A DNA stretch of 64,000 nucleotides. It comes from Mycolicibacterium flavescens. GTDB lineage: Bacteria; Actinomycetota; Actinomycetes; Mycobacteriales; Mycobacteriaceae. The position numbers and the translations under genes are program-made. How positions within the stretch are numbered: position 1 is the first letter of the stretch; each line of letters opens with the position of its first letter. The stretch covers positions 1-64,000 of the forward strand of contig NZ_MIHA01000019.1 of assembly GCF_001722335.1 (NCBI RefSeq), read 5' to 3'. Under the pieces are notes generated by a model. It made no database searches. It was given only the letters and a program-made list of their open reading frames with translations, and had not been told where the DNA came from. Positions 8,675-12,789 of this stretch are shown one piece after another.

Positions 8675-8974
8675 TCAATCGTCGGCGGGAGCGGAACCGA
8701 TCTGGTCGTGCAGCTCGGCGACATAGCCGTCGTATGCGGCAGCCACGTCATCGAGGTCGAGTTGAGGCGGCAGATCGTCGGGACGCTGGCGCGCGATCAG
8801 GAAGGCCGCGGTGGCGGCGACGACGCGGGCCTCATCGGGGTCAGGACCCGCGATGCGCGCCACGATCTCCGGGTCGGCCCGAACCTGGATGGCGACGGTG
8901 TCGGCGTCGAGCGTGAACCGGATGAGGAATTCATGATCGCCGAGCGCTTCGATGCGCGGGTGGTCGCAGCTCAT
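8675..8974 (-). CDS. 99-residue protein of unknown function in fdxA operon
   Basis: The start is set at ATG 8974 because ATGA overlaps the TGA of the upstream regulator; the frame stays open further upstream. The product (MSCDHPRIEALGDHEF...) has a short antiparallel strand pattern (EFLIRFTLDADTVAIQV) then helices, and ends in a helix (AAAYDGYVAELHDQI). No cofactor motif is visible apart from an N-terminal Cys-Asp-His. It is the third gene of the fdxA-regulator operon, so it is likely to share a redox-response role, which is inference only. Confidence 0.6.
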   Translation of the reverse strand: MSCDHPRIEALGDHEFLIRFTLDADTVAIQVRADPEIVARIAGPDPDEARVVAATAAFLIARQRPDDLPPQLDLDDVAAAYDGYVAELHDQIGSAPADD

Positions 8975-9657
8975 GGCTCTGACGGTGCCGATGCGGACGC
9001 CACGCGGGCCACGCACAGATCCGGCTTCACCAACGGGTCGAGGCGGTCGACGGTGACAGGTCCGCGCATTCCGGTCAGGGCGCCCTGCATCAAGCCGAGG
9101 TGCAGCGCGCACATCACGGTCCCGTGGTCTTCGACCAACTCGTGAAAAGGGCAGTGCCGCAGGCGGATCTGTGTGACCCGCCGGTCGGGCAGGGGCTCGG
9201 GTTCGAATCCGAGCTTATCGAGCAGCTCGACCAGGGCGGCCAGGGACTCGGATCTTGTCGGGGCCCGGCCGTGACGGTGCTCGACGAGTGAGGGCGCCCA
9301 CGAGCGGCCGAGCTCGGCGGCCGCTTCGGAGGGCTTGCCAGCCGTCGTGACGAAATGGTCGGCGAGAATCTTGGCGATCAGCCGGTAATTCGTCGGCCCC
9401 GCCGGGTCCATCCGGTGAGAGGCCCGGAACAACACGGGTGGGCGACCTGGGCCCGTGCTCTCGCTGATGAGTTGCTCGACGCGTTCGGCGCGTACGAGCC
9501 CGTCCAGATGAAAGCGGACAGTGTTCGGATGGACGTCCATCTCTTCGGCGATCTCCGCGATGCTGCGCGGTCGCGGCGAGTCACGCAGCAGCCGCAGGAT
9601 CAGTTCACGCCGCCCGGGCGCCGACGGCTTTTTCGCCGGCTTCACGGGGCGCGTCAC
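8971..9657 (-). CDS. winged-helix regulator with putative Fe-S cysteines (SufR/COG2345-like)
   Basis: A 228-residue regulator. Residues 15-80 form a winged helix (RSIAEIAEEMDVHPNTVRFH recognition region, then a GPGRPP wing). The C-terminal half carries HCPFHELVE (C169), VMCALHLGL (C183) and DLCVARV (C215). That three-cysteine CPFH / CxLH / C layout is the one that holds a 4Fe-4S cluster in SufR-type regulators. It is therefore likely to sense iron-sulfur status, oxygen or nitric oxide. It is translated from GTG 9657, overlapping the fdxA stop, and probably binds the inverted repeats upstream of fdxA (10009-10028). Confidence 0.8.
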   Translation of the reverse strand: MTRPVKPAKKPSAPGRRELILRLLRDSPRPRSIAEIAEEMDVHPNTVRFHLDGLVRAERVEQLISESTGPGRPPVLFRASHRMDPAGPTNYRLIAKILADHFVTTAGKPSEAAAELGRSWAPSLVEHRHGRAPTRSESLAALVELLDKLGFEPEPLPDRRVTQIRLRHCPFHELVEDHGTVMCALHLGLMQGALTGMRGPVTVDRLDPLVKPDLCVARVASASAPSEP

Positions 9658-10426: not shown

Positions 10427-12178
10427 ATGATCACCGTCACGGAACGTCCTGCGCCGCAACCAATGCCGATCCGGCATGGGCTCCGAGGTTCATTCGCCTA
10501 CCGGGTGGTGACCACGACCGACCCCAAGCTGTTGGGAATCATGTACGTGGTTACCTCGATCGGCTTCTTCCTGGCCGGCGGCCTGATGGCACTGCTGATG
10601 CGCGGTGAGTTGTCGTCCCCGGGCCTGCAGTTCCTGTCCAACGAACAGTACAACCAGTTGTTCACCATGCACGGCACGATCATGCTGCTGCTGTATGCGA
10701 CGCCGATCGTGTTTGGTTTCGCCAATTGCATTGTGCCCTTGCAGATCGGCGCCCCAGATGTGGCGTTTCCCCGACTCAACGCGCTCAGCTACTGGCTGTA
10801 TCTCCTCGGCGCGCTGATCACCGTAGCGGGCTTCGTGACCCCGGGCGGGGCCGCCGACTTCGGGTGGACCGCCTACAGTCCGCTCAGCGATGCGCTTCAC
10901 TCGCCGGGAGCCGGGGCCGATCTGTGGATCATGGGTTTGGTCGTCGCCGGACTAGGCACCATTTTGGGCGCGGTCAACATGATCACCACGGTGGCGTGCA
11001 TGAGGGCACCGGGCATGACGATGTTTCGGATGCCGATCTTCACCTGGAACATCCTGATCACCAGCATCATGATCCTCAGCGCTTTCCCGCTGCTGACTGC
11101 GGCGCTGCTGGGTCTGGCGGCCGACCGACACCTGGGCGCGCACATCTACGACCCGTCCAACGGCGGCGTGATCCTCTGGCAACACCTGTTCTGGTTCTTC
11201 GGACACCCGGAGGTGTACGTCGTGGCGATCCCGTTCTTCGGCATCATCACCGAGGTCGTCCCGGTGTTCGCGCGCAAACCGATGTTCGGCTACACCACGA
11301 TGGTCTACGCCACCGTGACCATCGCCGGACTGTCCACCGCGGTCTGGGCTCACCACATGTTCGCGACCGGCGCGGTGCTTCTGCCTTTCTTCTCCTTCAT
11401 GTCCTATCTCATCGCCATTCCGACCGGTATCAAGTTCTTCAACTGGATCGGCACGATGTGGAAGGGGCAGTTGACTTTCGAAACCCCGATGCTGTTTTCA
11501 GTGGGATTCATGGTCACCTTCCTGCTCGGTGGTCTGTCGGGTGTCATGCTGGCCAGCCCACCGGTCGATTTCCACGTCACCGACACCTACTTCCTGGTGG
11601 CGCACTTCCACTACGTGCTGTTCGGCACGATCGTCTTCGCCACGTACGCCGGCATCTACTTCTGGTTCCCGAAGATGACCGGGCGGCGGCTCGACGAGCG
11701 GCTGGGCAAGCTGCATTTCTGGCTGACGCTGATCGGCTTCCACACCACGTTCCTGGTGCAGCACTGGCTGGGCAACGAGGGCATGCCCCGCCGGTATGCC
11801 GATTACCTGCCGAGCGACGGATTCACCACGCTCAACGTCGTCTCGACCGTCGGCGCGTTCCTCCTGGGCGTCTCGATGCTGCCTTTCGTGTGGAACATCT
11901 TCAGAAGCTACCGCTACGGGGACGTGGTGACCGTGGATGACCCGTGGGGTTACGGCAACTCGCTGGAGTGGGCCACCTCGTGCCCGCCGCCGCGGCACAA
12001 CTTCACCGAGCTACCCCGGATCCGTTCGGAGCGGCCGGCATTCGAACTGCACTACCCACACATGACTGTGCGGATGCATGACGAGGCGAACATCGGCCGT
12101 CATCGCAAGAACTGCCTCACCGGGACCGCGTCGACCGGCAGTGGCGCCGCAACACAACGGAAGGCGGGAACGCGATGA
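10427..12178 (+). CDS. ctaD: cytochrome c oxidase subunit I (aa3-type), orphan copy
   Basis: A 583-residue, about 12-helix haem-copper oxidase subunit I. Low-spin haem ligand H82 (TMHGT) and H395, CuB ligands H260 and H309/H310 (VWAHHMF), the His-Tyr crosslink pair H260/Y264 in GHPEVY with its proton-gating E262, and haem a3 ligand H393 (AHFHYVLFG) are all present. It should therefore be a functional oxygen-reducing subunit. No genes for subunits II or III lie nearby; mycobacteria usually encode a main ctaD elsewhere, so this is likely an alternative subunit I. It is preceded by DUF2249 and overlaps the DUF5994-like gene by ATGA. Confidence 0.93.
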   Translation: MITVTERPAPQPMPIRHGLRGSFAYRVVTTTDPKLLGIMYVVTSIGFFLAGGLMALLMRGELSSPGLQFLSNEQYNQLFTMHGTIMLLLYATPIVFGFANCIVPLQIGAPDVAFPRLNALSYWLYLLGALITVAGFVTPGGAADFGWTAYSPLSDALHSPGAGADLWIMGLVVAGLGTILGAVNMITTVACMRAPGMTMFRMPIFTWNILITSIMILSAFPLLTAALLGLAADRHLGAHIYDPSNGGVILWQHLFWFFGHPEVYVVAIPFFGIITEVVPVFARKPMFGYTTMVYATVTIAGLSTAVWAHHMFATGAVLLPFFSFMSYLIAIPTGIKFFNWIGTMWKGQLTFETPMLFSVGFMVTFLLGGLSGVMLASPPVDFHVTDTYFLVAHFHYVLFGTIVFATYAGIYFWFPKMTGRRLDERLGKLHFWLTLIGFHTTFLVQHWLGNEGMPRRYADYLPSDGFTTLNVVSTVGAFLLGVSMLPFVWNIFRSYRYGDVVTVDDPWGYGNSLEWATSCPPPRHNFTELPRIRSERPAFELHYPHMTVRMHDEANIGRHRKNCLTGTASTGSGAATQRKAGTR

Positions 12179-12789
12179 GCGGGTCCGAAGTCAGGAAAAC
12201 CACCTCGAATAGGTCGCGCCGCACACGGGTGAGCACGGCCCGGTTCGCAGCCGCCCGCACGGCCGCAGTCTCATCCGGTTCGTCATACCCGGTCGGGCTG
12301 CGACTGCGGCTCAAACCGTGCCGCGTGCCGACAGGTGACGTCATCGGTGCCTGGTGGCCACGGTCGATCGAACTGGTCGCCGAACTCAGCGCGTTGGTCG
12401 GGCGCCTCGAATCGCGGTGGGGCCGTGTCGACCGCGTGGTCTACGACAGAAACCTCTGGGCGCCCGGACCTCCCGAGATGACCGTGGGCGGCCACACGGT
12501 GCATCTGCACGGTTCCTGGGACCGGGCTGTCAACATCGTGTCGTTGTGCGGCCCGGTGTTCGGGACACGGGCGCTGCTGGTCGTCCCGCCCTGCACCGAC
12601 CCCGTCCGCGCGTACTCGGCGGTGGTGACCGCGGCTGATCCCGACGATTGTTCGACCACAGACGAATTGCTCGGTATCGGCGCGCACGAGGCCGAGGAAA
12701 GACACCTGGCACAGATCGCCCAGCAGCGCTGGGAGAGCGAAGGCGGTGCGCTGAAAACGCCGAGCCGAGGCTTGGGACATCACCCATGA
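12175..12789 (+). CDS. DUF5994-like protein
   Basis: A 204-residue protein with a basic, probably disordered first 35 residues, then LRLRLKPCRVPTGDVIGAWWPRS, VDRVVYDRNLWAPGP and VHLHGSWDRAVNIVSLCG. This pattern is familiar from actinobacterial DUF5994 proteins; I am moderately sure of the family. No membrane helix or catalytic motif is evident. Its start overlaps the ctaD stop (ATGA), so it belongs to the DUF2249-ctaD unit and may assist the oxidase or the stress response. It ends ten bases from the convergent sulfotransferase. Confidence 0.6.
   Translation: MSGSEVRKTTSNRSRRTRVSTARFAAARTAAVSSGSSYPVGLRLRLKPCRVPTGDVIGAWWPRSIELVAELSALVGRLESRWGRVDRVVYDRNLWAPGPPEMTVGGHTVHLHGSWDRAVNIVSLCGPVFGTRALLVVPPCTDPVRAYSAVVTAADPDDCSTTDELLGIGAHEAEERHLAQIAQQRWESEGGALKTPSRGLGHHP

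What the first reader, a model, noticed from the sequence alone, without database searches (positions are those of the whole stretch)
8675..12789. Candidate redox-sensing module: fdxA, SufR-like regulator and small protein against DUF2249, ctaD and DUF5994
A 7Fe ferredoxin, a winged-helix regulator with a CPFH/CxLH/C cysteine triad, and a 99-residue unknown protein diverge from DUF2249, an orphan oxidase subunit I and a DUF5994-like protein. All are tightly coupled. DUF2249 proteins keep company with NO and low-oxygen genes. The set looks like an Fe-S-controlled respiratory adaptation unit that I do not know as a described system.
Basis: partly seen in the sequence, partly recalled or inferred. 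Interest (0 to 1): 0.75.

Follow-up and report, generated by a model that had tools for sequence, protein, structure and literature searches.

The report
Nitric-oxide-type switch for spare respiratory oxidase
A mycobacterium carries a small gene module in which a protein that resembles a known nitric-oxide sensor probably sits on one short DNA stretch between two gene groups and switches on, among others, a spare copy of the core subunit of its oxygen-using respiratory enzyme.

Summary
It is not SufR. It has the architecture of ArnR, the [4Fe-4S] nitric-oxide-sensing repressor of Corynebacterium: winged helix, TRAPP-like sensor fold, C-x13-C-x31-C. Some relatives sit directly behind narGHJI, as arnR does.

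One inverted repeat lies in the 38-47 bp between the arms. A matrix built from other loci finds only this place in the window. In relatives the operator lies before fdxA/regulator, before DUF2249 genes, before a norB (NO reductase) and before a ctaD-norB pair, so the regulon is probably about NO.

The CtaD is a paralogue distinct from the serB-linked copy. Ten of ten relatives' genomes tested hold a single CtaC, so such extra CtaDs must share it: an isosubunit of aa3 oxidase. Of CtaDs linked to the module, 16 of 17 carry Ser326, against 7 of 70 others; relatedness weakens this.

The set is not fixed: none of 80 other loci showed the six-gene order; the small protein stands beside the regulator in 6, DUF5994 nearby in 5. 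Cluster, NO sensing, repression and an NO-adapted oxidase are inferred, not shown.

The parts
8675..8974 (-). 99-residue protein of a small family, function unknown
   Evidence: 59 homologues at E<=0.001; of the 6 rows that name an organism 4 are mycobacteria, 1 a Streptomyces, 1 a Limnocylindria MAG; AlphaFold model pLDDT 83.5, no PDB fold match at E<=0.001
8971..9657 (-). ArnR-like wHTH regulator with C169/C183/C215 (+H168/H186)
   Evidence: HTH_20; invariant Cys/His; model pLDDT 81.9 matching TRAPP TPC6/Bet3 folds and wHTH proteins, the architecture assigned to ArnR/Rv2621c in PMC12343034
9654..9998 (-). fdxA, actinobacterial FdxA ferredoxin
   Evidence: NF045480 181.9 bits; directly upstream of the regulator in 56 of 80 loci
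10005..10035 (.). predicted operator (inverted repeat TACAA-N7-TTGTA) overlapping the divergent promoter region
   Evidence: only place in the 64-kb window scoring >=10 with a matrix built from 36 sites of other loci; TAATAT 6 nt before the fdxA ATG
10037..10384 (+). DUF2249 protein (ATG 10037 or GTG 10046 start)
   Evidence: PF10006 74.7 bits
10427..12178 (+). orphan ctaD, aa3 oxidase subunit I paralogue with C101/V266/T304/S326
   Evidence: NF050116; clade with four other fdxA-linked CtaDs, apart from serB-linked ones, 96/92 and 97/92
12175..12789 (+). DUF5994 protein, loosely associated
   Evidence: PF19457 94.7 bits; within 9 kb of the regulator in 5 of 80 loci

Best explanation
This is a local NO-response module. 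An ArnR-type regulator carries (inferred) a [4Fe-4S] cluster on C169/C183/C215 plus a non-cysteine ligand. As a dimer it binds one inverted repeat that lies across the short divergent promoter region, and so represses both arms: fdxA-regulator-small protein, and DUF2249-ctaD-DUF5994. NO nitrosylates the cluster, the dimer leaves the DNA, and both arms are expressed. The products are a ferredoxin, a DUF2249 accessory protein and an alternative CtaD that replaces the canonical subunit I in the bcc-aa3 supercomplex, using the only CtaC of the cell. This would adapt terminal oxidation to NO and low oxygen. Shown here: architecture, operator, its recurrence at NO-related genes in relatives, the paralogue, the single CtaC in relatives. 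Inferred: the cluster, NO as signal, repression, subunit exchange, the benefit.
For: Sensor: C-x13-C-x31-C against C179/C193/C223 of ArnR (x13, x29), whose Cys-to-Ala variants lose cluster and DNA binding; wHTH and TRAPP-like fold matches. Nar-linked relatives L044, L050, L076 share 43-51%; narI (PF02665) lies upstream in 4 of 67 loci at 45-55% identity. Operator: matrix score >=15 before fdxA in 48 of 56 fdxA-regulator pairs, 36 of which trained the matrix; upstream site >=15 in 61 of 67 loci at 45-55% identity, including 15 of 21 without fdxA, hence outside the training set. Twenty further loci: the 7 with the strongest regulators all carry it, none of them a training site (4 new to the session, 3 on contigs already among the 80), against 2 of 13 weaker paralogues. 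Genome-wide the window-type site occurs once per genome in 6 of 8 genomes. Further sites lie before norB (L147), before ctaD-norB (L002) and before separate DUF2249-cupin genes in five Nocardia loci. CtaD: one CtaC in 10 of 10 genomes, 2-4 CtaD matches in the same ones. S326 in 16 of 17 linked against 7 of 70 unlinked CtaD.
Against: No expression, cluster or binding data for any member. The window's operator scores only 10-11 with the general matrix (most others 30-50), and 7 of 9 assessed loci of its nearest relatives score under 5, so binding there rests on position and on the subfamily's own conserved variant. The canonical mycobacterial bcc-aa3 already resists and consumes NO (PMC7697965), so an NO-adapted isoform may not be needed. 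The S326 link was found post hoc: independent pairs give a mean of 4.0 for and 0 against out of 5 (median p 0.125); one serB-linked sole copy (L275) also has Ser and one linked CtaD (Skermania, L039) has Thr. ctaD is near the regulator in only 16 of 80 loci. The globin reading of neighbours in some loci found no Pfam or PDB support. ArnR itself was not compared by sequence.
Confidence: 0.6

Rival explanations
1. The regulator is an Fe-S or redox sensor of cluster supply or oxidative stress (SufR-like), and fdxA/ctaD answer iron or oxygen status rather than NO.
For: wHTH with Cys triad; a weak match to SufR_cyano covers residues 19-180; the module encodes an Fe-S ferredoxin.
Against: TIGR02702 23.5 bits against cut-off 178.8; I noticed no suf genes in the gene lists seen, but did not search for them; operators lie before norB and the regulator gene lies behind narGHJI in some genomes.
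Confidence: 0.15
2. The orphan CtaD is a low-oxygen (high-affinity) or merely dosage copy of subunit I that happens to be co-regulated; it has no NO-specific property.
For: Catalytic motifs are intact and it is 75-89% identical to other CtaDs; NO accumulates when O2 is low, so an NO switch would also report hypoxia (ArnR model).
Against: Positions 326, 266, 312 and 390, near the haem-copper ligands by sequence (ligand roles recalled), are ranks 1, 2, 3 and 5 among the columns that separate linked from unlinked CtaD; direct adjacency of ctaD to norB in L002/L086.
Confidence: 0.3
3. The two arms are neighbours by chance; the regulator controls only its own fdxA arm.
For: In the 67 loci at 45-55% identity, 24 have a divergent DUF2249 and 10 a nearby ctaD; 21 lack fdxA itself.
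Against: Start codons 38-47 bp apart with the operator between them; in five Nocardia loci and a few mycobacterial ones where DUF2249 lies elsewhere it has its own operator copy.
Confidence: 0.08

Closest known systems
ArnR of Corynebacterium glutamicum (PMC12343034: abstract and sections 4, 14, 16, 20 read)
   Same: wHTH + TRAPP-like sensor domain, three Cys with x13 first spacing, conserved His nearby, gene behind narGHJI in some mycobacterial relatives
   Different: Targets of ArnR named in that paper are narKGHJI and hmp; here fdxA, DUF2249 and an orphan ctaD share one operator; second Cys spacing 31 instead of 29. C. glutamicum ArnR itself was not fetched, so there is no direct sequence comparison; a nar-linked candidate from an unnamed 2.7-Mb genome shares 22%
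Rv2621c of M. tuberculosis (called ArnR-like in PMC12343034)
   Same: same kind of regulator by that paper's fold comparison; many loci of this study (regulator, TM protein, cupin-like protein, near thrS) look like its neighbourhood, from recall of Rv gene order
   Different: fdxA and ctaD are, from recall, not next to it; I did not fetch or align it
SufR (TIGR02702)
   Same: wHTH with C-terminal cysteines
   Different: far below the curated cut-off
NsrR of Streptomyces (PMC4432287, search listing only)
   Same: [4Fe-4S] NO-sensing repressor with few targets
   Different: Rrf2 family; PMC12343034 states that ArnR has no significant homology to it
Pseudomonas orphan CcoN isosubunits (recalled, no call)
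   Same: extra subunit I genes without partners, said to help under NO/nitrite or cyanide
   Different: cbb3-type oxidase, other regulators
DrpA/DrpB of Thermus and haloarchaeal DUF2249 proteins (PMC6282519, PMC11218638, passages)
   Same: DUF2249 genes inside nitrate/NO gene clusters; the four of H. mediterranei rise under denitrification
   Different: no ArnR-like regulator or orphan CtaD in the passages read

Membership tests
ArnR-like regulators | N-terminal winged helix-turn-helix | tested here: met
   PF12840 37.6 bits, cut-off 27; model
ArnR-like regulators | three conserved C-terminal cysteines, first spacing x13 | tested here: met
   C169/C183/C215 invariant in 25 rows; ArnR C179/C193/C223
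ArnR-like regulators | TRAPPC3-like fold of the sensor domain | tested here: met
   best PDB match TPC6 2bjn_B E 8.4e-4 (the only one at E<=0.001), Bet3 1wc9 E 2.7e-3
ArnR-like regulators | direct sequence homology to C. glutamicum ArnR | tested here: inconclusive
   ArnR not fetched; nar-linked candidate L164 shares 22%
ArnR-like regulators | [4Fe-4S] cluster, NO-dependent loss of DNA binding | not testable with these tools
   needs protein
ArnR-like regulators | targets in nitrate/NO metabolism | tested here: met
   in relatives: operator before norB and ctaD-norB, regulator behind narI; in the window itself the operator lies only before fdxA/DUF2249
SufR (TIGR02702) | curated model score 178.8 bits | tested here: not met
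   23.5 bits
aa3 cytochrome c oxidase subunit I | curated actinobacterial subunit I model | tested here: met
   NF050116 1003 bits, cut-off 880
aa3 cytochrome c oxidase subunit I | ligand and proton-channel motifs (HPEVY, AHHM, PTGIK, GAPD; roles recalled) | tested here: met
   all present
orphan isosubunit | extra subunit I without own subunit II | tested here: met
   in relatives: one COX2 in 10 of 10 genomes, 2-4 CtaD matches; the window's own genome is not held

The most novel reading that the evidence does not exclude
Actinobacteria repeatedly recruited a duplicate CtaD into ArnR-controlled NO modules and tended each time to change the same haem-copper-site positions (Thr to Ser in helix VIII, Ile to Val just after the cross-linked Tyr). 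The result is an NO-specialised isosubunit that an Fe-S NO sensor swaps into the bcc-aa3 supercomplex, so that the oxidase itself becomes an inducible NO-consuming enzyme.
Probability: 0.32. Interest if true: 0.82.

Novelty: new variant of a known kind. Interest (0 to 1): 0.61.

Why it matters
It gives a concrete regulator, operator and target set for NO control of terminal oxidation in mycobacteria and Nocardia; in the papers I saw, ArnR was characterised only in corynebacteria with nar and hmp as targets. It offers a reason for some of the extra ctaD genes of environmental mycobacteria as isosubunits. It also makes a testable link to the reported NO-metabolising activity of the bcc-aa3 supercomplex and to the unknown role of DUF2249 proteins.

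Tried and rejected
SufR assignment: rejected on score. Searching the window's own genome: not held. Solved-structure search by sequence for the regulator gave best E 0.031 and no ArnR- or TRAPP-named chain. The small protein gave only a sub-threshold Pfam match and no NCBIfam match, and no PDB fold match at E<=0.001. One common origin for all fdxA-linked CtaD: AU p 0.0285 against it, so I favour more than one recruitment, but gene conversion between copies is not excluded. V266 and T/S304 as markers: weaker than S326. A ~145-aa neighbour in several loci that I read as a truncated globin: no Pfam match and no PDB sequence match, so I do not use it as evidence. The cupin reading of the downstream neighbour is below Pfam's cut-off (24.9 against 27.2 bits). 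Literature: (open-licence PMC only) listed no paper that by title, abstract or the passages I read joins fdxA, DUF2249, an ArnR-like regulator and ctaD; subscription papers are not covered. PMC13332983 (passages) describes a qNOR of Rhodococcus equi and has no mention of ctaD, DUF2249 or ArnR. The ArnR operator sequence of C. glutamicum was looked for in two papers and not found in the text, so operators could not be compared.

Rows dropped: CtaD pieces under 480 residues or with early stops were left out of the trees; pieces under 400 were left out. Identical cores were counted once. In one search linkage was set by a rule (fdxA, norB, DUF2249 or a strong regulator within about 4 kb); L202, with a weak regulator paralogue at 4 kb, and L238 were counted as unlinked.
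Full report
WHAT IS THERE. The six ORFs are confirmed. The left arm reads fdxA, regulator, small protein with 4-bp overlaps; the right arm reads DUF2249, 42 bp, ctaD, 4-bp overlap, DUF5994. The start codons of the arms are 38 bp apart (ATG 10037) or 47 bp (GTG 10046, which by eye lines up with the start of the L003 homologue). The nearest named homologues of the regulator are mycobacterial; the window's own genome is not held.

THE REGULATOR. The protein search scored 2804 proteins at E<=1e-5 and listed the best 120. 120 of 120 carry the CxF...CxxH motif, and C169, C183, C215, H168 and H186 are invariant in 25 aligned rows. 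One ORF (P0058) fuses the ferredoxin to the regulator. SufR_cyano scores 23.5 bits against a cut-off of 178.8. PMC12343034 describes C. glutamicum ArnR: winged helix plus a TRAPPC3-like sensor domain, C179/C193/C223, a [4Fe-4S] dimer that is slow with O2 and loses DNA on NO, with the gene immediately downstream of narKGHJI. The window's regulator has C-x13-C-x31-C, and its model (pLDDT 81.9) matches TRAPP TPC6 (2bjn, E 8.4e-4) and Bet3 (E 2.7e-3), with wHTH proteins among the other hits. Nar-linked relatives L044, L050 and L076 share 43-51% with it; ArnR-like proteins L162 and L164 from unnamed small genomes share 22%. The nar genes of L044 are confirmed by Pfam (Nitrate_red_gam 295.5 bits, Nitr_red_bet_C 97.6 bits, Molybdopterin 199.3 bits).

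CONSERVATION. The scan of one genome per species found 440 pattern hits, 422 encoding a relative; the best 80 loci were kept. In those 80: 10 at >=55% identity (9 with fdxA directly upstream, 6 with divergent DUF2249, 6 with ctaD within 6 kb, 6 with the small protein, 4 with DUF5994 within 9 kb, 5 with the TM protein); 67 at 45-55% (46 fdxA, 24 divergent DUF2249, 10 ctaD, 0 small protein, 1 DUF5994, 54 TM protein, 39 cupin-like, 4 narI); 3 below 45% (1 fdxA, 3 divergent DUF2249, 0 ctaD). Some loci end at contig ends (L001, L007, L009), so absences there mean little. No locus shows the window's exact order: in L003, L006 and L008 a TM gene lies between regulator and small protein, and DUF5994 adjoins ctaD in none. 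A profile search of 121 family genomes found matches at E<=1e-6 in 84, many of them weak paralogues.

THE OPERATOR. Upstream of 56 fdxA-regulator pairs (55 from the loci, one from the window) a consensus TAGTTTTTACAA-N6-TTGTGTAAACT recurs; 48 of 56 score >=15 with a matrix built from 36 of them (30 with spacer 6, 6 with 7). The 36 include no site from the window, from L001-L010 or from Nocardia. The right arm holds a TAAACT that mostly ends 7-8 nt before the fdxA ATG, which suits a leaderless transcript (inference). Best complementarity averaged 8.6 of 12 against 7.1 in letter-shuffled sequence; >=10 of 12 in 7 of 56 against 5 of 1120, so the repeat is imperfect. The matrix scores >=10 at one place only in the 64-kb window, 10005-10035, on both strands. 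Most of the nearest relatives carry a variant (ACTATTCCTACAAGTNNTAATTGGAGTAAT), found once per genome in 6 of 8 genomes with up to 3 mismatches, control 0. The general pattern occurs in 10 of 12 genomes, 1-7 matches (the two strands of one palindrome count separately), control 0-1. In 1.80 Mb of loci there are 98 merged sites at >=20, 74 within 330 bp of an fdxA/regulator start and 24 elsewhere, and none in a mononucleotide shuffle. The 24 include regions fetched twice (L027/L148, L019/L188). Among the 24 are sites before DUF2249 or DUF2249-cupin genes, one 63 bp before norB in L147, and one 163 bp before a ctaD followed by norB in L002; some have no named gene beside them. NorB is PF22085, E 1e-54. 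In 20 further loci the 7 strongest regulators all have the site (L188, L191 and L195 lie on contigs already among the 80, but held no training site; L189, L190, L192, L193 are new), and 2 of the 13 weaker ones do.

THE OXIDASE SUBUNIT. 18 of 18 genomes searched have CtaD matches, 17 of them more than one (some are fragments). The fdxA-linked copies of L003, L004, L006 and L008 are 86-89% identical to the window's; other full-length copies 75-84%. Canonical copies sit by serB and fecB (the two neighbours carry ACT/HAD and Peripla_BP_2 domains). The window's CtaD groups with those four linked ones (96/92; 97/92); Nocardia's linked copies form another clade, and a single origin is disfavoured (AU p 0.0285). 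Ten of ten genomes hold exactly one COX2 match; COX3 gives one strong match in nine and two in one, plus weaker ones in six. Hence the orphans must use the shared CtaC. Among 87 CtaDs, Ser326 occurs in 16 of 17 linked and 7 of 70 unlinked (Fisher p 3e-11, ignoring relatedness); it separates the groups best of all columns. Independent pairs: mean 4.0 for, 0 against, of 5; median p 0.125. It was noticed on the first 31 sequences (13 of 14 linked, 1 of 17 unlinked), so only the later 56 are a test: 3 of 3 linked (L151, L192, L203) and 6 of 53 unlinked have Ser; one of the six, L275, is serB-linked and the sole match in its genome. By counting back from K336 of PTGIK it corresponds to Thr352 of the R. 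sphaeroides enzyme in helix VIII (recalled; one search listed no open paper with that residue in this enzyme).

HOW IT LIKELY WORKS. See the best explanation. The mycobacterial bcc-aa3 resists and consumes NO (PMC7697965, abstract and discussion read). That makes an NO-tuned isoform chemically plausible but weakens the need for one. DUF2249 genes rise under denitrification in Haloferax mediterranei and DrpA is proposed as a nitrate sensor (passages). In M. tuberculosis, Rv2620c-Rv2622 appear together in one table of transcripts lowered by an aldehyde (passage), which neither supports nor opposes NO control.

VERDICT. A real module; a new variant of the ArnR kind of NO switch with an unexpected target, an isosubunit of the main terminal oxidase.

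Noticed in passing
L147:13533-15857 and L002/L086: Mycobacterial norB genes (NorB_cytochrome_c-like) under the same predicted operator, one directly beside an orphan ctaD.
   Followed up: partly
L147:3469-5352, L027, L059: A membrane molybdopterin oxidoreductase (PF00174 in L147) with operator sites near it in mycobacteria and a Nocardia; substrate unknown.
   Followed up: partly
downstream of the regulator in L011-L080: A ~145-aa membrane protein without Pfam match and a small cupin-like protein follow the regulator in 54 and 39 of 67 loci; neither was listed in the window's arm.
   Followed up: partly
L071:8500-8907, L148:15491-15934 and others: A ~145-aa protein near several regulators that I first took for a group III truncated globin; Pfam and PDB sequence searches gave nothing.
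   Followed up: partly
L004:2615-4019, L008:5030-6424: DUF5994 genes divergent from a second, ~32% identical regulator; possibly a separate regulator-DUF5994 pair.
   Followed up: no
P0058: An ORF fusing FdxA and the regulator (real fusion or frame error).
   Followed up: no
L174, L175, L176, L178, L180, L181, L183, L184: Further ctaD paralogues with neither serB nor module genes found nearby; some genomes have four copies.
   Followed up: no
window 44438-54883: Looks like an mce/yrbE operon (by eye, not searched).
   Followed up: no
window 61850-62542: Two low-complexity repeat ORFs (VPEVWV and LKNPTLPVP type).
   Followed up: no
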